A stretch of DNA of 64,000 bases, taken from NCBI GenBank assembly GCA_020073305.1, contig JAIQFK010000005.1:124001-188000 (forward strand), read 5' to 3'. The notes under the pieces were generated by a model that did no database searches, was not told the DNA's origin, and was given only the letters and a program-made list of their open reading frames with translations. The stretch comes from Terriglobia bacterium (GTDB lineage Bacteria > Acidobacteriota > Terriglobia > Bryobacterales > Bryobacteraceae). The translations under genes and the position numbers were made by a program. Numbering within the stretch: the stretch's first letter is position 1; each line of letters begins with the position of its first letter. Shown here one piece after another: positions 2,719 through 42,396 of the stretch.

Positions 2719-2941
2719 CGCGCGGGCCGTCAAACTCCTGACAGCCCGACCCGTCCGTCAGAATCCTGACAGGCGATCACCTGACTTCAGCGCAATAGGT
2801 CAAGAGCCGCGCTCGGGTAACCCGTTGCCAGTGCAGAGGGTCGCGGTCTCTCCTTTCGATGATCCAATTGGCCCCTCGCTTGCCACGAACTCTACCGGCG
2901 CATCTCGTGGCTGGAGCGTTCGTGTTCACTGGAGATAACCA

Positions 2942-3787
2942 TTGTCACCTTCACCGGCATTCATAAGAGGAGTCCCCGAACCTAGATCCGCTTCGTACGC
3001 CGGCTCGGTTCGGCCCCGGCGGCTCGATCTAGGGATGCTGGCAGGCGTCGTGATCGCCCTGGTGGCAACCGTGGCCGGTATCGCTTCCACCGGAGTCAGC
3101 CTGAAATATTTCCTGCAACCAACCGGCGCGCTCATCGTGCTGGGCGGGACCCTGGGCGTCACCATCATCACCACGCCGCACACCAGCTTGTTCTACGCGG
3201 CGCGGCGGGTTAGCCAGCTTTTCCGGAATTCAGTCTTCGACCGTGAAGCCCTGATTGAAGAGATCGTCTCCTATTCGAGGGTTGCCCGGAGCAAAGGCTT
3301 GTTTGCCATCGAGCCTTTGATTGAACAAGCCAGCAATAAATTTCTCGCGGACGCATTGCTGCTTGCCATGGATGTGAAGCAGCGGTCGGAATTGCAGTCG
3401 GCACTGGAGGACAAAGTCCGGTTGCGTGAGCGCCAAGGCGAAGGGGACGCCCGCATTCTCGAGGTTGCGGGCGGTTTCGCTCCTACGATCGGCGTAGTGG
3501 GAACCGTGGTTGGGTTAATCGACGTGTTCCGGCAATTTTCCACGCCCAGCTCGGTGGTGAACGGCGTTGGCACGGCTTTCGTTTCCACGATCTACGGCCT
3601 GGTTTTGGCGAACGTGGTGCTGCTGCCGGCGGCACAACGCATCCGCGCCAGGGTGGCCGAGGCATTCGAAACTCAGGAACTCATGATGGAGGGTGTGCTT
3701 TGCGTTTTCGACGGCATCCATCCCTCGGTGATGCGCCAGCGGCTGCATTGCTTCCTCCGCGAGACCGAAGAGCCGCATGACGCCTAG
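2942..3787 (+). CDS. motA: MotA/TolQ/ExbB-type proton channel subunit (MotA family)
   Basis: A 281-residue inner-membrane protein of the MotA family, which pairs with MotB to form a proton-driven stator. Four hydrophobic segments are visible at about 33-52, 60-80, 178-196 and 205-228. The cytoplasmic loop between the second and third is charged, and the TIGVVGTVVGLI segment of the third helix is typical. The chosen start is TTG at 2942, with GGAG 8 bases upstream. The core alignment begins at about residue 27, so a later start such as the ATG at 3035 is possible. It overlaps the MotB-like gene by 11 bases. No flagellar genes are in the window, so the energised machine (flagellum, gliding or envelope) cannot be told. 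Confidence 0.85.
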   Translation: MSPSPAFIRGVPEPRSASYAGSVRPRRLDLGMLAGVVIALVATVAGIASTGVSLKYFLQPTGALIVLGGTLGVTIITTPHTSLFYAARRVSQLFRNSVFDREALIEEIVSYSRVARSKGLFAIEPLIEQASNKFLADALLLAMDVKQRSELQSALEDKVRLRERQGEGDARILEVAGGFAPTIGVVGTVVGLIDVFRQFSTPSSVVNGVGTAFVSTIYGLVLANVVLLPAAQRIRARVAEAFETQELMMEGVLCVFDGIHPSVMRQRLHCFLRETEEPHDA

Positions 3788-35168: not shown

Positions 35169-37031
35169 CTACTTCACCGTGATCTTGAGCGAATAGCTGC
35201 CGCTGATCACGCAATCGAAGGGTACCGAAGCCTGTTCGAAAGCGCTTTCCGCGGTCATGACCATGGGGCGATTCGACGTGCGCCCCGCCTGCATCACGTT
35301 CAGCACGGAAGCCGGCAGACTGGGCATGGTCTTGTCGTCGTAATAGGCCGTCGGCGTGGATTCCAGCAACGAGATGTACAGCTTGTTGTTGCTGCGCTCC
35401 TGGTTGATGAGCGAGACCGTCTCGGAAAGGTCCATGTAACGGCTCAGGTAGCCGGCCATGTTCTGCATGTGGTTGAGGGTTTCGGCATCGCTCAGCAGGA
35501 TACGGTGTTCGCCTTTGCTGAGCCCTTCGGGAATGTGCACCTTGAAGTTGCGCTCCATGCGGTCACCGCGATAAGGCCGCAGGAACACCTTCACCGCCGC
35601 GTCGTTCCCGGGACGCACGTCGCTGTCCGCGATCCAGGCGTTTTCGATGCTTGCCACGCGCCGTTCCGGCAGCAGGTCCACCGTCACGCTGACCCGTTTC
35701 AGCCGCGGCGTCTTCACGGCGTTCAAATACAGCCGGTTGAACTTGTCGCCCCACCAGCCCGCCAGCAGCATGGGCGCGGGCATCGGCATCTCGCCCGATG
35801 CCTGCATGGTGTTCAGCGAGAGACTGCCGCCGCCGTCCAGGTCCACTTCGCCGGACAGACGGTAGGTCGCTTCCTCCATGAACTCGTTCAGCGCCGAAAC
35901 GGAATTGAACAGCGTCAGCATCATCAGATTGGGCGTCCACTTCTGCTGCTCGAAGACGTTGAAGTGGAAATCTTTCTCGCTCCTGACCGCGTTGTTCTCG
36001 CCGAATGACCGTACGCTGACGGTCACCGGAATCATCTCCGTCTCCGCGCCCAGCACGCCCATGATGCCGCTGTGCCGGTCCTGGTGCAGCGCCCCTACGA
36101 TTTCCGTCGCGTTGGCGAATTTATTGGGCTGAAACGCCGAAGCGAGCACCATGAGCACTTCGCCTTTGCTCATCGGCATGTCCACCGGCCCGAGATTGAA
36201 GAACGGATGGCCGAACGCCAGCACGCGTTTGCCGTCGTTGTAGGTGACCGTGCCGAGGCCCGTGATGCTCATGTCACCGGAAACCAGCACGCCCGCGACT
36301 GCTTCACCGGGCTTGAGCGAGTCTTTCCAGTCGGGCGCTGGCTTGGTCGTGTAAATCGCGCCACTGGCGCCACCCTGCACGGCGCTGATGCCCAGTTGCT
36401 GGAACACCGGTCCAAACTCCTGCAACACACTCTCATGGAAACCGGAAAACACAAGCGGCGTCTCGATCGGCGTCATCAACGGCGCCTGGCGCCGCAGGTT
36501 GGGTGAGGCGCCCGCCGCTACGGCCTGCGCCAGCAGTTCACTCGGTACGCTGACTTCGCGCCGTCCCGCTGCCTTATCCGGAGTGCGTGCATCCATGGGG
36601 CGCGACTGATCGAGGTCGTTGATCTCCAACATCAGCTCGATGGGTGTGATGCCGCAGATGGCATCTGGCGAAAACATGCTCAGCCGGAGCGCGATGGCGC
36701 CCACCAGCTTCCCGTCGATATAAACCGGGCTCCCGCTCATCCCGCCCGCGACGTTGGTTCGCTGCGCCTTGCCACCCAATTTTGCCAGGATGGTGTCCTG
36801 TTTCGGCCCCCAGGCGTTTTTCCACAGGCCAATGATCTCTACTGGAATGGCTTCCGGTTGAGTGCCCTGAAATACCGTCCAGGCTACGCCTTGCATGCCA
36901 GGGCGCAATTCGGAGGCCTTGAAGATCTCCACTTTGCCTGATTTTGGAGCTTGTAAGGTCAATTCCTCGGGGAATGCGGGAAGAAGCGCGGCCGCCGCCA
37001 GTACCACTACCGCGGCGATGTGTTTTTTCAT
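35169..37031 (-). CDS. SpoIVB-type S55 serine peptidase domain protein, secreted
   Basis: A 620-residue exported protein with a signal peptide (about 4-20). The N-terminal domain contains LRPGMQGVAWTVFQG and the catalytic-type motif NVAGGMSGSPVYIDG (Ser99/Ser101), the hallmark of SpoIVB peptidase S55 domains. The segment VLAFGHPFFNLGPVDMPM is also typical. SpoIVB is a sporulation signalling protease in Bacillus, but there is no sign of sporulation here. In Acidobacteria the family is periplasmic or extracellular and of unknown target. The long C-terminal part (about 300-620) is beta-rich and unassigned. The propeller gene follows 22 bases downstream. Confidence 0.8.
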   Translation of the reverse strand: MKKHIAAVVVLAAAALLPAFPEELTLQAPKSGKVEIFKASELRPGMQGVAWTVFQGTQPEAIPVEIIGLWKNAWGPKQDTILAKLGGKAQRTNVAGGMSGSPVYIDGKLVGAIALRLSMFSPDAICGITPIELMLEINDLDQSRPMDARTPDKAAGRREVSVPSELLAQAVAAGASPNLRRQAPLMTPIETPLVFSGFHESVLQEFGPVFQQLGISAVQGGASGAIYTTKPAPDWKDSLKPGEAVAGVLVSGDMSITGLGTVTYNDGKRVLAFGHPFFNLGPVDMPMSKGEVLMVLASAFQPNKFANATEIVGALHQDRHSGIMGVLGAETEMIPVTVSVRSFGENNAVRSEKDFHFNVFEQQKWTPNLMMLTLFNSVSALNEFMEEATYRLSGEVDLDGGGSLSLNTMQASGEMPMPAPMLLAGWWGDKFNRLYLNAVKTPRLKRVSVTVDLLPERRVASIENAWIADSDVRPGNDAAVKVFLRPYRGDRMERNFKVHIPEGLSKGEHRILLSDAETLNHMQNMAGYLSRYMDLSETVSLINQERSNNKLYISLLESTPTAYYDDKTMPSLPASVLNVMQAGRTSNRPMVMTAESAFEQASVPFDCVISGSYSLKITVK

Positions 37032-37118: not shown

Positions 37119-39785
37119 ATGCACCAGAAGAAAACGGAACGAATTGACCTGGACCCGCAGGAGACTTCAGAGTGGCTACAGGCCCTGGACCAGGTGGTGG
37201 AGGAGGTGGGTCCCGATCGCGCGTCCTTCCTTTTGGAGCGCCTCGCCCAGCGCGCCCGGACCATTGGCGTCGAGCTGCCAATCCAGCACAACACCCCTTA
37301 CATCAACACCATCAGCCCGCAAGATGAGGTGCCCTACCCGGGCGACCGCTCGCTCGAGCGCCGCATCAAAAGCCTCACTCGCTGGAACGCCATGGCCATG
37401 GTGTCGCGCCAGAACAAGTTCGACCACGGAATTGGCGGCCACATTGCCACTTATGCTTCGGTGGCCACGCTGTTCGAGGTCGGGTTCAACCATTTCTTCC
37501 ACGGCAGCTATGGCGATCAGCCCGGTGACTGCGTCTATTTTCAGGGCCACGCCTCACCCGGCGTTTATGCGCGAGCTTTTCTCGAAGGCCGGCTGAAACC
37601 CGAGCACCTGGAAAACTTCCGCCACGAGCTGCGGGATCATCCGGGTCTGTCGTCCTATCCGCATCCCTGGCTGATGCCGGGATTCTGGAACTTCCCTACG
37701 GTCTCAATGGGCATTGCGCCCATCAATGCCATCTACCAGGCGCGGTTCATGCGCTATCTGGAAAACCGCGGGCTGATTGAGAAAACGCCCCGCCACATCT
37801 GGGCGTTTCTCGGCGACGGTGAGATGGATGAGCCGGAATCCATGGGCTCACTCACGCTGGCCTCGCGCGAGCGGCTCGACAACCTGATCTTCATCATCAA
37901 TTGCAATCTGCAGCGGCTGGACGGTCCTGTTCGCGGCAACGGCAAAATCATCCAGGAACTCGAAGCCGCCTTTCATGGCGCCGGCTGGAACGTCATCAAA
38001 GTCATCTGGGGGACGGACTGGGACGATCTATTGGCTCGCGATAAGACCGGTCTGCTGTTGAAGCGCATGGAAGAGTGCGTAGACGGCGAATATCAGTCCT
38101 TCAAAGCCAAAGGCGGCGCTTTCGTCCGCAAGGAGTTCTTCGGCAAGTATCCGGAGCTTCTCAAACTGGTGGAGCATCTGAGCGACGAACAGGTAATCCG
38201 GCTGCGCCGCGGCGGGCACGATCCGCAAAAAGTGTTCAATGCTTACCGCGCGGCGGTGGAACACCAGGGCCAGCCGACGGTGATCCTGGCCAAGACGGTA
38301 AAGGGCTACGGTGTGGCGGAGATCGAGGCCCGCAACCCGACTCATCAGCAGAAGGAGCTGAACGACCGTGCCGTGCAGCTCTTCCGGCAACGCTTCGATA
38401 TTCAGCTTCCCGAGGATGTGGCTGCGAATGTCCAGTTCTATCGCCCGCCGGATGGCAGCCCGGAAATGGCCTATCTGCACGAGCGGCGCCGGCAACTCGG
38501 CGGCTACGTTCCCCAGCGCAGGCTGATGGCGAGCCGGATCCAGGCTCCGCCCCTCGATGCCTTCCCCGATCTGCTGGCCGCCACCAAGGCACCGCATCCC
38601 TCCACCACCATGGCGGCCGTGCGTATGCTGACGCTGCTCATGAAAAACCCGCAGATCGGCAAACGCGTCGTTCCCATCATTCCCGACGAAGCGCGAACTT
38701 TCGGCATGGAAGGGCTCTTCCGCGTCTTCGGCATCTACGCGTCGGCGGGCCAACTCTATAAGCCGCATGACGCCGACATGTTCCTGTATTACAAGGAACA
38801 GCAGGACGGTCAGATCCTGGAAGAAGGCATTACCGAGGCGGGCTCCATGGCCTCGTTCACGGCGGCGGGCACGGCCTACGCGACGTACCGGACGGAGATG
38901 ATTCCGTTCTTCATCTATTACTCCATGTTCGGATTCCAGCGCGTAGGGGATCTGATCTGGGCATTCGCCGACGCGCGCGGGAAAGGCTTTCTGATGGGCG
39001 GCACTGCCGGACGCACGACGTTGGCGGGCGAAGGCCTGCAGCATCAGGACGGCCACAGCCTGGTGCTGGCGAGCACCGTGCCCACCTGCGCGGCTTACGA
39101 TCCGGCCTACGCGTACGAAATCGCGGTGATCGTGCAGGACGGCATCCGGCGCATGTACCAGGAGCAGGAAGACCGCTTCTACTACCTGACGCTCTACAAC
39201 GAGAACTACGCGATGCCGCCCATGCCCGAAGGCGTCACGGAAGGAATTCTCAAGGGCATCTACCGATTCAAAGCCGGCGAGAATGGCAAAGCGTCGCTGC
39301 AACTATTCGGCAGCGGCCCCATCTTGAACGAGGCCGTACGCGCACAGACCATACTGGCCGAGCGTTATGGAGTTGCCGCGGACGTGTGGAGCGTCACCAG
39401 CTACAACGAACTGCGGCGCGACGCGCTGCGCACGGAACGCTGGAACCGCCTGCACCCCGATCAGCCAGTGCGGCAGCCCTACCTTCTTTCGGCGCTCGGC
39501 GGCGCCGAAGGCCCGGTTGTTGCAGCAACCGACTACATGAAAGTGGTGGCGGATCAGGTTGCCCCCTGGCTTCCCGGTCGCATGGTCACGCTCGGCACCG
39601 ATGGCTTCGGCCGCAGCGACAACCGCGAATATCTGCGCAAGCATTTCGAAGTGAACGCGGAGTCGATTGTCACCGCGGCATTGTCACGCCTCGCGCGCGA
39701 TGGAAAGTTCGACGCTGCAAAGGCGAAGAAAGCGTTCGTCGATCTGAGTATCGACCCCGAAAAGATCGATCCGTCGATCGCGTAG
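37119..39785 (+). CDS. aceE: Pyruvate dehydrogenase E1 component, homodimeric type
   Basis: AceE decarboxylates pyruvate with thiamine diphosphate and transfers the acetyl group to E2 lipoyl domains. The 888-residue single-chain type is normal length. Characteristic segments are GGHIATYASVATLFEVGFNH, YFQGHASPGVYARAFLEG, the TPP/Mg motif FLGDGEMDEPES...NCNLQRLDGPVRGN, and LMGGTAGRTTLAGEGLQHQDG with ATVPT-like context. No aceF or lpd gene follows. The gene has its own strong promoter and stands alone, divergent from the S55 peptidase gene. Confidence 0.97.
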   Translation: MHQKKTERIDLDPQETSEWLQALDQVVEEVGPDRASFLLERLAQRARTIGVELPIQHNTPYINTISPQDEVPYPGDRSLERRIKSLTRWNAMAMVSRQNKFDHGIGGHIATYASVATLFEVGFNHFFHGSYGDQPGDCVYFQGHASPGVYARAFLEGRLKPEHLENFRHELRDHPGLSSYPHPWLMPGFWNFPTVSMGIAPINAIYQARFMRYLENRGLIEKTPRHIWAFLGDGEMDEPESMGSLTLASRERLDNLIFIINCNLQRLDGPVRGNGKIIQELEAAFHGAGWNVIKVIWGTDWDDLLARDKTGLLLKRMEECVDGEYQSFKAKGGAFVRKEFFGKYPELLKLVEHLSDEQVIRLRRGGHDPQKVFNAYRAAVEHQGQPTVILAKTVKGYGVAEIEARNPTHQQKELNDRAVQLFRQRFDIQLPEDVAANVQFYRPPDGSPEMAYLHERRRQLGGYVPQRRLMASRIQAPPLDAFPDLLAATKAPHPSTTMAAVRMLTLLMKNPQIGKRVVPIIPDEARTFGMEGLFRVFGIYASAGQLYKPHDADMFLYYKEQQDGQILEEGITEAGSMASFTAAGTAYATYRTEMIPFFIYYSMFGFQRVGDLIWAFADARGKGFLMGGTAGRTTLAGEGLQHQDGHSLVLASTVPTCAAYDPAYAYEIAVIVQDGIRRMYQEQEDRFYYLTLYNENYAMPPMPEGVTEGILKGIYRFKAGENGKASLQLFGSGPILNEAVRAQTILAERYGVAADVWSVTSYNELRRDALRTERWNRLHPDQPVRQPYLLSALGGAEGPVVAATDYMKVVADQVAPWLPGRMVTLGTDGFGRSDNREYLRKHFEVNAESIVTAALSRLARDGKFDAAKAKKAFVDLSIDPEKIDPSIA

Positions 39786-40125
39786 GGGGCATCGAACCTC
39801 CCAACTGCCGGGTTCGTAGGAGCCAGGTGAGCGCTACGCAAATGTTGTCGCTGGCACTGTGGCGTAGGTCTTTGCCGTAAAAAAAATTCTAATTCAAGTT
39901 AATTAGGACTGTTTATCTCATAATTACTTGCAAAGGCCTTGAAAAAAACGTGCAGTCGTGTTACACTCTCGCCGCAGCGTTGAGAAACATACCTAATTCT
40001 TCCGCTAGAATGCGGAATTGAGTCTTGCTTTTCGGCGTTGACCTTTCGTGCGGCGCTTTGTGCTACGCCGCTGTAATACCCACGAAACCAAGCGCCTAAC
40101 CGGGCGCAAAAAGGAGAGTGTACTC
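39786..40125 (+). promoter_or_regulatory. Intergenic region with long structured leader of the protease gene
   Basis: This 340 bp stretch contains no gene. Its first 150 bases include an AT-rich run (39875-39930). A promoter (annotated separately) would start a leader of about 150 bases. The leader contains two possible hairpins, TTCCGC...GCGGAA (about 39999-40016) and GCGGCG...CGCCGC (about 40051-40072), before AAGGAG and the GTG start. Confidence 0.55.
39939..39967 (+). promoter_or_regulatory. Promoter of the metallopeptidase-inhibitor unit
   Basis: TTGAAA (39939-39944), a 17-base spacer and TACACT (39962-39967) make a good housekeeping-type promoter lying in an AT-rich stretch. The predicted start is near 39974, giving a leader of about 150 bases before the GTG at 40126. 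Confidence 0.6.
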
Positions 40126-41541
40126 GTGTCTACAGCAACCCTCGTGGAGCGACCGCAACCGCTTTATCAGGCGCTGTTACAGCAACAGGGCCGAGCGGCA
40201 GGGCGAGCCATTCCCACTCCAATTCCCATTCCCATTCCTCATCCGCTTCCCGTTGTGGGATCTCGATTCCTCATCTGGAAGCAAGATCCATCGGTTGATC
40301 CTCCCGGTCTTCGCTTGTCCTATGTTCCGAGCCTGGTGCTGGATGGACCGAGGGACAGCCGCATTGCGACCGAACTGCCCAACGTCACGCCGGTCCATGC
40401 CAACACCAACCGTGACTTCATCTTCGCGCCGGGCACTCCCGAAGCGGACTGCGCCCACACGTTCGCCGTCGTGCGCGAAACCCTCGCCATGTACCAGCGA
40501 ATTCGCGGCGGCGCCGCCATACCTTGGGCATGGAACATCGGCGGGAATGCCGATCCCATCACCGCATTTCCCCGCGCCGGTGTGACCGCCAACGCCTTCT
40601 ACAGTCGCGGTCTGAAGGCGCTGAAGTTTTTCTATTTCACTCCGGCGAACGCCACCCAGCCGGTCTACACTTGTCACTCACTCGATATCGTCTCTCACGA
40701 GTGCGGCCATGCAGTTCTCGATGGACTGAAGCCCGGCTGGCTGGGAGCGACCAATCCGCCACAGACCGGCGGACTCCACGAATCCTTCGGTGACCTCACC
40801 GCCATCTTCCTGGCGTGCTCGCAGCTCGATCAGGTGGACGCCGCGGTGGCCATGACCAAAGCGAACCTGCATGACCGGAACTTCCTCGCCGCCCTGGCCG
40901 AGCAGTTCGGCGCCGCCCTCGGGTCCCCCCAGGGGCTCCGCAATGCCGACAACGATCTCAAGCTCAGCCAGGTGGGCAACGAAGTCCATGCCATTTCCCA
41001 GGTATTTACCGGCGCCATGTATCACGTGCTGGCCGATATTTTTGCCTTCGAGAAGAACCGTCAAGCAGCGGTCAAGGATCCCACACGGGTGCTCCTTGAG
41101 GTGGCATCGTGCCTCTGCAAACTGCTCGTGGAGGCGATCGTGAAGGCGCCGCCCGTGGGCGCAACCTATGCCGATGTGGTCAACCAGATGCTCGCGATCT
41201 CCAAAGCACAGGGCGATCCCGCCATATACCGCACATTCCTGCGCAACCGTTTCACCGAGCGCGAAGTGGTCGTCTCACCGGTCCCACTGACGGCCATGGC
41301 CGAAGGCCGAATGAACCTCGCCGACCCCAATTATACGGAAGGCCAGGATCTCGTTAAGATGGAGGCGCGCAAGCACGCCGCCGACCAGGCTCCACAGGAC
41401 CGTTCGGCTTGCTGCGGAACCATGCAGCTTCCCGAATACATGTTAGGCGATCAGAAGAAGCTCGAGAAGGGTGTGGTCATCGTAGAGGAGGACATGATTG
41501 CAGCCGAGGTCGCCGAGCTCAAAAAGATGTTCGCTCGCTAG
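40126..41541 (+). CDS. Thermolysin-like (M4-type) gluzincin metallopeptidase, apparently intracellular
   Basis: A 471-residue protein from the GTG at 40126 (AAGGAG 9 bases upstream). The zinc motif HECGHAVLDG is followed about 30 residues later by GGLHESFGDL, giving the third ligand Glu, as in thermolysin. A later NEVHAISQVFTGAMYH corresponds to the loop bearing the transition-state histidine. There is no signal peptide; instead the N-terminus has a Pro/Ile repeat (IPTPIPIPIPHPLP), and a Cys pair occurs near the C-terminus (ACCGTM). The family's normal HELTH is replaced by HECGH. An emfourin-like gene follows, as in protealysin loci, supporting an intracellular protealysin-like enzyme. The substrate is unknown. 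Confidence 0.78.
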   Translation: MSTATLVERPQPLYQALLQQQGRAAGRAIPTPIPIPIPHPLPVVGSRFLIWKQDPSVDPPGLRLSYVPSLVLDGPRDSRIATELPNVTPVHANTNRDFIFAPGTPEADCAHTFAVVRETLAMYQRIRGGAAIPWAWNIGGNADPITAFPRAGVTANAFYSRGLKALKFFYFTPANATQPVYTCHSLDIVSHECGHAVLDGLKPGWLGATNPPQTGGLHESFGDLTAIFLACSQLDQVDAAVAMTKANLHDRNFLAALAEQFGAALGSPQGLRNADNDLKLSQVGNEVHAISQVFTGAMYHVLADIFAFEKNRQAAVKDPTRVLLEVASCLCKLLVEAIVKAPPVGATYADVVNQMLAISKAQGDPAIYRTFLRNRFTEREVVVSPVPLTAMAEGRMNLADPNYTEGQDLVKMEARKHAADQAPQDRSACCGTMQLPEYMLGDQKKLEKGVVIVEEDMIAAEVAELKKMFAR

Positions 41542-41548
41542 AGTTGTG

Positions 41549-41576
41549 CTGGCGCCGGCTCTCGGGTCGGCGCCAG
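41549..41576 (+). promoter_or_regulatory. GC-rich hairpin between protease and inhibitor genes
   Basis: CTGGCGCCG and CGGCGCCAG form a perfect 9-base stem with a 10-base loop. It is followed by AATTAAT, not a T-run, so a complete intrinsic terminator is unlikely. The inhibitor start codon lies 7 bases after the stem with no Shine-Dalgarno. It may set the relative expression of the two genes. Confidence 0.55.
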
Positions 41577-41583
41577 AATTAAT

Positions 41584-41886
41584 ATGACCATTCTGATCAA
41601 GCGATCCGGGGGCTTCGCTGGCCGCGAGGAGCGCTTGGCCGCAATAGACACCAGCGAACTGCCAACGACAATCGCCGATCGGGTCCGCGAGCGAATTGCT
41701 CGCTTGACGGCATTGAGTGCACAAGAGCCATCAGCCGGCGCGGACCGCCTCCAGTACGAGATCGAAATCACCGAGCCCGGTACCGGAGGACGGAAACTAA
41801 CGGTGGTCGATGAGGGGGATCCGGATGATCCCGCCATGAAGGAGGTCATAGCCATCCTCGAGTCGGCCGGCGGAAAGCCGTGGTGA
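41584..41886 (+). CDS. Emfourin-like metallopeptidase inhibitor
   Basis: A 100-residue cytosolic protein, 42 bases after the M4-type peptidase. The N-terminal IKRSGGFAGREERLAAIDTS matches the pattern of emfourin, the protealysin inhibitor of Serratia, whose homologues often sit beside protealysin-like genes. Also present are the beta-strand pair LQYEIEITEPG and RKLTVVDEGD, and the final helix MKEVIAILES. No signal peptide is seen. The assignment comes from remembered family pattern plus gene context, not from a search. An alternative is an unrelated small hypothetical protein. Confidence 0.65.
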   Translation: MTILIKRSGGFAGREERLAAIDTSELPTTIADRVRERIARLTALSAQEPSAGADRLQYEIEITEPGTGGRKLTVVDEGDPDDPAMKEVIAILESAGGKPW

Positions 41887-41924
41887 TCTCGCCGCTGGGC
41901 GAAGCTCAAGTCGGGCTATTACAC

Positions 41925-42396
41925 ATGACGAGCAGAGTCGTGAAGACCGTAATCTTCACGATCCGTGTGCCCGGCACCGTGGCGGTGGTCATCCCGCGCG
42001 CCATCGCTGACGACGCCGTCAGACCCACACTTTTCTCCTCGATCGGATTCCTGCCGGTCGCTATGGGAGCCGCGGTCTATTTCTAGTGCGCCTGGGATTT
42101 TGCAACCGCGGGGCAGGGAACTCCAGCGGCCGATCGACGCTCCCAAACGTCTGGTGGTGCGAGACCTCTACCGTTTCGTGCGCAATCCTATGTATCTGGG
42201 CGTTCTGCTGGTTCTGACCGGCGAGAGCCTGGCGTTCCAATCCGCGCGGATTCTCACTTACGCGGCCATTGTCTTCGTGTTCTTCAACCTGTTCGTGGTG
42301 TTCTAGGAAGAGCCGGCGCTCAAGCGCAAGTTCGGCGCCACGTACGAGGAGTATTTGAGAACGGTGTCCCGGTGGATACCGCGCGGGGGTATGTAA
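41925..42396 (+). pseudogene. Decayed isoprenylcysteine carboxyl methyltransferase-like (ICMT/PEMT family) gene
   Basis: Joined frames reconstruct an integral-membrane methyltransferase. The N-terminal part reads from the ATG at 41925 through a helix ending GAAVYF, then meets a TAG at 42084 where an aromatic residue would precede CAWDFATAG. A one-base insertion near 42130 shifts the frame to PIDAPKRLVVRDLYRFVRNPMYLGVLL, the family hallmark. A second TAG at 42304 sits in FVVF-stop-EEPALKRKFG, where homologues have Tyr. The frame then runs to RWIPRGGM and a TAA at 42394. Two nonsense changes and one indel make function very unlikely. It follows the inhibitor by 38 bases. Confidence 0.8.

What the first reader, a model, noticed from the sequence alone, without database searches (positions are those of the whole stretch)
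40126..41886. Intracellular thermolysin-like protease paired with an emfourin-like inhibitor
The protease keeps HExxH, the distant Glu ligand (HESFGDL) and the His loop (NEVHAISQ), but has HECGH, a Pro/Ile N-terminus and no signal peptide. The next gene encodes a 100-residue protein with the RSGGFAG start of emfourin. Emfourin-protealysin pairs are known mainly from enterobacteria and a few other lineages. An acidobacterial version with an unusual protease N-terminus would be a divergent and little-described example of a protease-inhibitor module.
Basis: partly seen in the sequence, partly recalled or inferred. Interest (0 to 1): 0.7.

Follow-up and report, generated by a model that had tools for sequence, protein, structure and literature searches.

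The report
Divergent thermolysin-fold protease paired with emfourin
Next to a gene for a known kind of protease-blocking protein lies a thermolysin-fold protease at or beyond the edge of the family that this blocker is tied to, and the pairing recurs in several bacterial groups, so the blocker may control a wider range of enzymes than assumed.

Summary
Window 40126-41541 encodes a 471-residue protease with HECGH, LHESFGD and EVHAIS; 41584-41886 encodes an emfourin (PF20242, 43.1 bits, cut-off 27). The unusual part is the protease, not the phylum. It is below the M4 and M36 cut-offs; of 19 members scanned, two just reach the M4 catalytic-domain cut-off (L012 22.7, L008 22.4; cut-off 22.4) and none the M4 helical-domain or M36 cut-off. 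Nine canonical emfourin neighbours score 102-206 bits. The model has the thermolysin/fungalysin fold, nearer to fungalysins (Z 27-28) than M4 (Z 19-22). Emfourin lies directly downstream in 35 of 41 members with readable DNA, 28 of them from one family. The window genome has one such protease, one emfourin, no M4_C or M36 match. Two cyanobacterial loci hold M4 protease, this protease and emfourin in a row. Against: three genomes keep an intact protease with no emfourin found; docking was not confident (pTM 0.70). Verdict: real, a new variant of a known protease-inhibitor module; inhibition untested.

The parts
39939..39967 (+). Possible promoter (TTGAAA, 17 nt, TACACT with TG before it) upstream of the protease
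   Evidence: Consensus scan: 4 sites on both strands of the region against 0.7 expected; not evidence of function
40126..41541 (+). Zinc metalloprotease (predicted) of the thermolysin/fungalysin fold, CGTM-tailed family, 471 aa
40126..40254 (+). N-terminal segment (residues 1-43), low-confidence, one predicted helix (12-26), Pro/Ile-rich 29-42; ends about where mature M4/M36 chains begin
   Evidence: pLDDT under 50 for 1-43; structural alignments with LasB and M36 start at model residues 44-46
40672..40674 (+). Invariant Cys183, 8 residues before the first zinc-ligand His
   Evidence: 44 of 44 family members
40696..40710 (+). HECGH zinc site with catalytic Glu192 (residues 191-195)
40774..40794 (+). 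LHESFGD, candidate third zinc ligand Glu219 and Asp223 (residues 217-223)
40984..40995 (+). VHAI with His288, candidate transition-state histidine
   Evidence: the role is inferred from thermolysin
41410..41424 (+). C-terminal CCGTM motif (residues 429-433)
   Evidence: Cys430 in 42 of 42 members that reach it; beyond the end (421) of the best structural alignments
41549..41576 (+). Uninterrupted 12-pair RNA hairpin between the genes (two G-U pairs), no T run
   Evidence: -24.4 kcal/mol, z -4.0, 0 of 200 shuffles as low
41584..41886 (+). Emfourin, 100 aa
   Evidence: PF20242 43.1 bits; predicted beta-beta-alpha-beta-beta-alpha

Best explanation
The two genes are a protease and its own inhibitor. 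The protease is a cytoplasmic zinc endopeptidase of the thermolysin/fungalysin fold, from a family at or beyond the edge of M4. Emfourin, made from the next gene, is inferred to bind the active-site region one-to-one, as it does with protealysin, and to keep the enzyme silent inside the producing cell; the enzyme acts when the balance is broken (stress, death, lysis or release). Shown here: the genes, the conserved catalytic residues, the predicted fold, the emfourin match, the recurrent gene order and the lack of any detected M4_C or M36 protease in this genome. Inferred: zinc binding, proteolysis, inhibition, cytoplasmic location and the trigger.
For: Emfourin match over the cut-off in the window, and at E <= 0.1 in 18 of 18 aligned family emfourins, the window's included. 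Emfourin directly downstream in 35 of 41 protease family members with readable downstream DNA (spacing from a 4-base overlap to 298 bases). Window genome: one emfourin, one protease of this type, no PF02868 match, no PF02128 match. Of 24 genomes searched for PF02868, 8 have no match; 6 of those 8 carry the pair (G002, G003, G008, G540, G643, G595; adjacency, that of G003 cut by a contig end). Catalytic residues intact in 43 of 44 members. Fold: first 27 Foldseek matches all M4 or M36; Z 27.9-27.2 for M36, 21.8-19.3 for M4. Tree of 33 emfourins: 18 of 20 beside this protease fall in one group (support 94/81); 3 changes of partner label against 10.5 in shuffles. Emfourin inhibits protealysin and thermolysin, binds the active-site region 1:1, and its deletion in S. 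proteamaculans lowers viable counts by 20-30% (PMC9505478, passages read).
Against: Three genomes with an intact protease have no emfourin detected (G593, G649, G621; completeness not told), nor has the MAG G444 (88% complete). In Calothrix (L013) the one emfourin found by the family profile stands beside an M4 protease elsewhere. The fused read-through model did not dock emfourin with confidence: pTM 0.70 against 0.82 for the protease alone, and no coordinates could be read. 28 of the 35 pairs come from the family of Pseudoduganella, so they are not independent. Two of 19 scanned members reach the PF01447 cut-off and the zinc site is nearer to M4 than to M36 by profile, so the family may be a fringe of M4.
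Confidence: 0.7

Rival explanations
1. The family is simply a far-diverged branch of M4, so the pair is the known M4-emfourin module and emfourin's target range is not widened.
For: Two of 19 scanned members reach the PF01447 cut-off (L012 22.7, L008 22.4; cut-off 22.4), and 12 of 15 match PF01447 at E <= 0.1. hhalign against a same-phylum M4 set gives 91.6% at the zinc site, M36 52.8%. Two loci hold it beside a canonical M4 gene.
Against: 17 of 19 scanned members, the window included, are below PF01447 and none reaches PF02868 (best 17.4, cut-off 24.4). No propeptide match. The predicted structure is nearer to M36. Extra C-terminal tail with CCGTM.
Confidence: 0.3
2. The protease is an effector delivered to competing cells (by vesicles, lysis or a secretion system) and emfourin is the immunity protein that protects the maker and its kin.
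For: Toxin-plus-inhibitor gene order; the same role was proposed for protealysin and emfourin, whose protease cleaves FtsZ and RecA (PMC9505478, passages). Patchy distribution: neither of the two same-genus genomes searched has the protease.
Against: No delivery gene among nine neighbouring ORFs scanned (27456-51039; shorter ORFs and the rest of the genome not searched). No delivery domain or signal peptide seen. Some genomes keep the protease without a detected inhibitor.
Confidence: 0.15
3. Emfourin does not control the adjacent protease but another target, or serves as a folding helper; the adjacency is inherited from an older M4-protease/emfourin locus.
For: In two cyanobacterial loci an M4 gene precedes this protease and one emfourin follows, and their emfourins group with M4-linked ones. 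Three intact proteases stand without a detected emfourin.
Against: In the window genome and six others with the pair no PF02868 protease was found. 18 of 20 emfourins beside this protease group together rather than with M4-linked ones.
Confidence: 0.12

Closest known systems
Protealysin-emfourin operon of Serratia proteamaculans
   Same: Thermolysin-fold protease gene paired with an emfourin gene; emfourin family shared
   Different: The window partner is below the M4 cut-offs, has no match to the protealysin propeptide, and carries a CCGTM tail
Fungalysins (MEROPS M36)
   Same: Best structural match of the model: Z 27.9, 307 residues, rmsd 3.1
   Different: Below PF02128 cut-off (12.6 against 23.3 bits); Glu motif HESFGD here, mostly GE(G/A)WSD-like in the M36 set; no signal peptide seen; an emfourin neighbour is not known to me for M36 (recalled)
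Thermolysin, LasB and other secreted M4 enzymes
   Same: Fold (Z 20.7-21.8), HExxH, a downstream Glu-x-x-x-Asp, His in a V-H-x-x-S loop
   Different: 13-16% identity in the structural alignments; no signal peptide or large propeptide seen
IMPI-aureolysin complex (7skl, 7skm)
   Same: A protein inhibitor of a thermolysin-fold protease
   Different: Inhibitor not compared here; the hits are to the protease

Membership tests
Emfourin (PF20242) | Profile match over the curated cut-off | tested here: met
   43.1 bits, cut-off 27; 18 of 18 aligned sequences match at E <= 0.1; by genome search 11 of 14 relatives' genomes have a match over the cut-off
Emfourin (PF20242) | Inhibits a thermolysin-fold protease 1:1 at the active site | not testable with these tools
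   Needs an assay; fused model pTM 0.70, no coordinates
Peptidase family M4 | PF01447 / PF02868 over the cut-off | tested here: not met
   Window: PF01447 12.8 bits (cut-off 22.4), PF02868 not listed. Of 18 relatives scanned, L012 (22.7) and L008 (22.4) reach the PF01447 cut-off, none reaches PF02868. Nine canonical neighbours score 102-115 and 151-206 bits. So not met for the window protein; borderline for the family
Peptidase family M4 | Thermolysin fold with HExxH and downstream Glu | tested here: met
   the fold is shared with M36
Protealysin-like proteases | Propeptide with PPL motif (PF16485) | tested here: not met
   No PF16485 match for the window protein at E <= 10 (filters drop most above 0.1), none in 15 members at E <= 0.1, and no PP pair in the first 58 window residues. 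The control is weak: 9 of 9 canonical neighbours match at E <= 0.04 but only 1 (L108) passes that model's cut-off, and the two M4 genes of the cyanobacterial loci do not match at E <= 0.01. Definition from PMC6778150, passages
Peptidase family M36 (fungalysin) | PF02128 over the cut-off | tested here: not met
   Window 12.6 bits, cut-off 23.3; none of 18 relatives over it
Peptidase family M36 (fungalysin) | Fold similarity above that to other families | tested here: met
   Z 27.9-27.2 against 21.8 for the best M4; Z grows with aligned length, so this alone does not make it M36
Peptidase family M36 (fungalysin) | M36-type Glu signature (GEGWSD and variants) | tested here: not met
   Here LHESFGD; M36 set of 18 shown
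Effector-immunity pair | Delivery route linked to the gene | tested here: inconclusive
   No delivery gene among nine neighbours; the rest of the genome was not searched for one

The most novel reading that the evidence does not exclude
A separate, uncharacterised family of cytoplasmic metallopeptidases, between M4 and M36, that replaced the built-in protealysin propeptide by outside control: emfourin was taken over from a neighbouring M4-protease locus (the three-gene cyanobacterial order being the intermediate), and the invariant Cys183 and Cys430 give a second, redox- or metal-dependent lock on the C-terminal tail.
Probability: 0.2. Interest if true: 0.7.

Novelty: new variant of a known kind. 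Interest (0 to 1): 0.45.

Why it matters
Emfourin is a recently described inhibitor family, worked out on M4 enzymes. If it also controls this distant thermolysin-fold family, found here in six lineages, its target range is wider than assumed. The loci that hold both protease types with one emfourin allow a direct test of how an inhibitor changes partner. The family also offers a natural catalytically dead member without a detected emfourin.

Tried and rejected
Rejected: 'emfourin is lost when the protease dies' as a rule. One dead member (L032: HQTGH, VQTLS) lacks emfourin in a 99%-complete genome, but five intact members with downstream DNA also lack it there (L013, L050, L058, L079, L080), so the single case has no statistical weight.

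Rejected: a conserved hairpin between the genes. Strong in the window (z -4.0) and L002 (z -4.5), not in the other 11 of 13 spacers folded. No Rfam match in 39700-42200; no T run, so not a simple terminator.

Rejected: anti-phage defence membership (no PADLOC match at E <= 0.1), phage carriage (27 pattern matches in viral contigs, none confirmed; two partial matches of 31-32% identity among 50,697 phage records), plasmid carriage (matches in 129 records, all below 60% identity, none covering 80%).

Softened after a recount: 'the family is outside M4'. Searches show two of 18 relatives at the PF01447 cut-off, so I now write 'at or beyond the edge of M4', raised the odds of the diverged-M4 rival from 0.1 to 0.3 and lowered those of the novel case from 0.25 to 0.2.

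Led nowhere: searches of PDB sequences gave only chance-level hits or none for protease and emfourin. NCBIfam gave nothing over a cut-off. Docking by a single-chain read-through model: emfourin folds well but pTM fell to 0.70. Aminopeptidases and LTA4 hydrolase (Z 10-11) share only the catalytic region. M36 was searched by family only in the 61 genomes.

Papers: PMC9505478 and PMC6778150, passages only; others seen only in listings. The first emfourin paper (Int J Biol Macromol 2021, 169, 583) was seen only as a reference; a partner of this kind may be reported there. Searches of print: ('emfourin' in 2 held papers, 'protealysin inhibitor' in 1). How sequence databases name this protease was not checked.

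Full report
What is there. Window 40126-41541 (+) encodes a 471-residue protein starting at GTG with AGGAG nine bases upstream; 41584-41886 (+) encodes a 100-residue protein. The spacer is 42 bases. The first has HECGH (191-195), LHESFGD (217-223) and EVHAIS (286-291); the second has RSGGFAG at 7-13. The second matches Emfourin PF20242 at 43.1 bits (cut-off 27); the first reaches no Pfam cut-off: M4 catalytic domain 12.8 of 22.4 bits, M36 12.6 of 23.3 bits, no protealysin propeptide match at E <= 10. NCBIfam and PADLOC give nothing over a cut-off or at E <= 0.1.

The genome. The window lies in a 6.98-Mb assembly, 99.89% complete with 4.96% contamination. That it is acidobacterial follows: G246, of the same phylum, carries its match at the same contig place as L002, titled Acidobacteria. 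The genome holds one emfourin, one protease of this type, no PF02868 match and no PF02128 match (row G000). If emfourin acts on a thermolysin-fold enzyme at home, the neighbour is the only candidate these searches found.

The family. A scan of genome contigs gave 14 relatives (by record titles Acidobacteria, Gemmatimonadetes, Deltaproteobacteria, Duganella, Pseudoduganella, Massilia, Janthinobacterium, Sphingomonas, Cyanobacteria). Relatives' genomes added G062, 55% identical; a phylum sample added G444 and G348; 145 genomes of the family of Pseudoduganella (group not named by the tool) gave 30 with a match at E <= 1e-30, one of them, G664, only short and distant. In the phylum sample 4 of 396 genomes match at E <= 1e-30, the window's own included. 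Neither of the two same-genus genomes searched has it. Aligning 45 sequences and dropping the distant fragment L081 leaves 44 members. The catalytic residues are intact in 43; L032 has HQTGH and VQTLS. Cys183 is present in 44 of 44 and Cys430 in 42 of 42 that reach it. Cys193, the first x of HExxH in the window, occurs only in the window, L004 and L009.

M4 or not. Besides the window, 18 relatives were scanned singly. PF01447 reaches its cut-off of 22.4 in two (L012 22.7, L008 22.4) and stays at 12-21 bits or unlisted in the others; PF02868 stays at or below 17.4 (cut-off 24.4); M36 at or below 12.6 (cut-off 23.3). hhalign gives 91.6% with a 15-sequence M4 set over 36 columns at the zinc site and 52.8% with an 18-sequence M36 set over 185 columns. 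The structure points the other way (below). I therefore place the family at or beyond the edge of M4, unassigned.

Gene order. Three of the 44 stop at a contig end (L051, L075, L078). Of the other 41, 35 have an emfourin directly downstream on the same strand (L004 is cut by its contig end but begins like one, 15.8 bits). The six without are L013, L032, L050, L058, L079, L080. Searches with the emfourin alignment found none in the genomes of five of these (G062, G444, G593, G649, G621), nor in G348, G614 and G636, whose proteases are cut by contig ends; G012 (L013) has one, next to an M4 protease. 28 of the 35 pairs are from the family of Pseudoduganella; the other seven are the window, L002, L003, L004, L009, L012 and L014.

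Control: the usual partner. In 396 genomes of the phylum 23 have an emfourin at E <= 0.001, 18 over the cut-off. Of the 23 loci fetched besides the window's own, 12 show an M4-type gene (HE(L/M)(T/S)HG with a downstream NE/HE..D motif; two of them, L121 and L125, on the opposite strand), one (L117, the genome of L002) the present protease, and 10 neither within the DNA held. Nine M4 neighbours, seven of them from this phylum and two cyanobacterial, score 102-115 bits on PF01447 and 151-206 on PF02868. So the models detect ordinary partners easily. The propeptide model is a weaker control: all nine match at E <= 0.04, but only one passes its cut-off.

A joint locus. In L012 and L014 (Cyanobacteria) an M4 protease gene (PF02868 159-160 bits) lies directly before this protease, and one emfourin follows. 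In the Scytonema genome a second M4-emfourin pair stands elsewhere (L016). In a tree of 33 emfourins 18 of the 20 next to the present protease fall together (94/81), while the two cyanobacterial ones group with M4-linked L110 and L118 (88/98); the label changes 3 times against 10.5 in shuffles. Few branches are starred and several rows are long, so single placements are unsure. I read this as at least one change of partner.

Fold. The AlphaFold2 model has pLDDT 80.5 and pTM 0.82, residues 1-43 below 50; the other four models had mean pLDDT 75.8 to 54.3. The first 27 Foldseek matches in the PDB are all M4 or M36 enzymes. VIA-align puts four M36 structures first (Z 27.9-27.2, 305-310 residues, rmsd 2.9-3.2, model 46-421), then M4 (Z 21.8-20.7, rmsd 3.3-4.0; protealysin precursor 19.3, rmsd 3.2). 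Z grows with length and the M36 chains are longer. The N-terminal 43 residues end about where mature M4 and M36 chains begin, so an unrecognised short prosegment is not excluded.

Mechanism. By analogy with protealysin, whose emfourin binds the active-site region 1:1 and whose emfourin deletion lowers viable counts (PMC9505478, passages), emfourin should silence the protease in the cytoplasm. A read-through chain of protease, spacer and emfourin was modelled to look for docking: emfourin's ten-residue blocks are mostly at pLDDT 88-94 (one loop block 71, ends 68-78), as beta-beta-alpha-beta-beta-alpha, but pTM drops to 0.70. That is inconclusive and gives no support to docking.

Surroundings. 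No delivery system among nine neighbouring ORFs. A promoter-like site lies 160-190 bases before the protease and none on the + strand in the spacer. The spacer forms a strong hairpin 7 bases before the emfourin ATG, which has no clear ribosome-binding site by eye; this is not conserved.

Verdict. A real, recurrent module with an unusual protease: a new variant of the protease-emfourin pair. That emfourin inhibits this enzyme is inferred.

Noticed in passing
L032:1420-2883 (+): Catalytically dead member of the protease family (HQTGH, VQTLS) in a same-family genome (G062), with CCGTM kept and no emfourin detected in the genome.
   Followed up: yes
L079, about 2880-2966 (+): By eye, a short reading frame after an intact protease resembles the two ends of an emfourin with the middle missing; possibly a decayed inhibitor gene. 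The emfourin profile did not detect it.
   Followed up: partly
L038:763-3864 (-); by eye also L039, L040, L044: Distant relatives (28-39% identity over parts) in the same bacterial family; L038 carries a subtilase domain (PF00082) before a HExxH region that Pfam does not name. Distant matches on Rhizobium plasmids are annotated 'serine protease'.
   Followed up: partly
window 41549-41576: Strong uninterrupted hairpin between the two genes, 7 bases before the emfourin start; a strong hairpin of different sequence lies at the same place in L002.
   Followed up: yes
window 41965-42380: By eye an apparently broken phospholipid/isoprenylcysteine methyltransferase-like gene (PF04191, 32.1 bits over part of the profile) downstream of emfourin.
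   Followed up: partly
window 35169-37031 (-): SpoIVB-type S55 peptidase-like protein (PF05580, 31.7 bits).
   Followed up: no
L069, L073, L076, L077, L079, L080: Six family members have HETAH instead of HExGH; two of the six lack a downstream emfourin.
   Followed up: no
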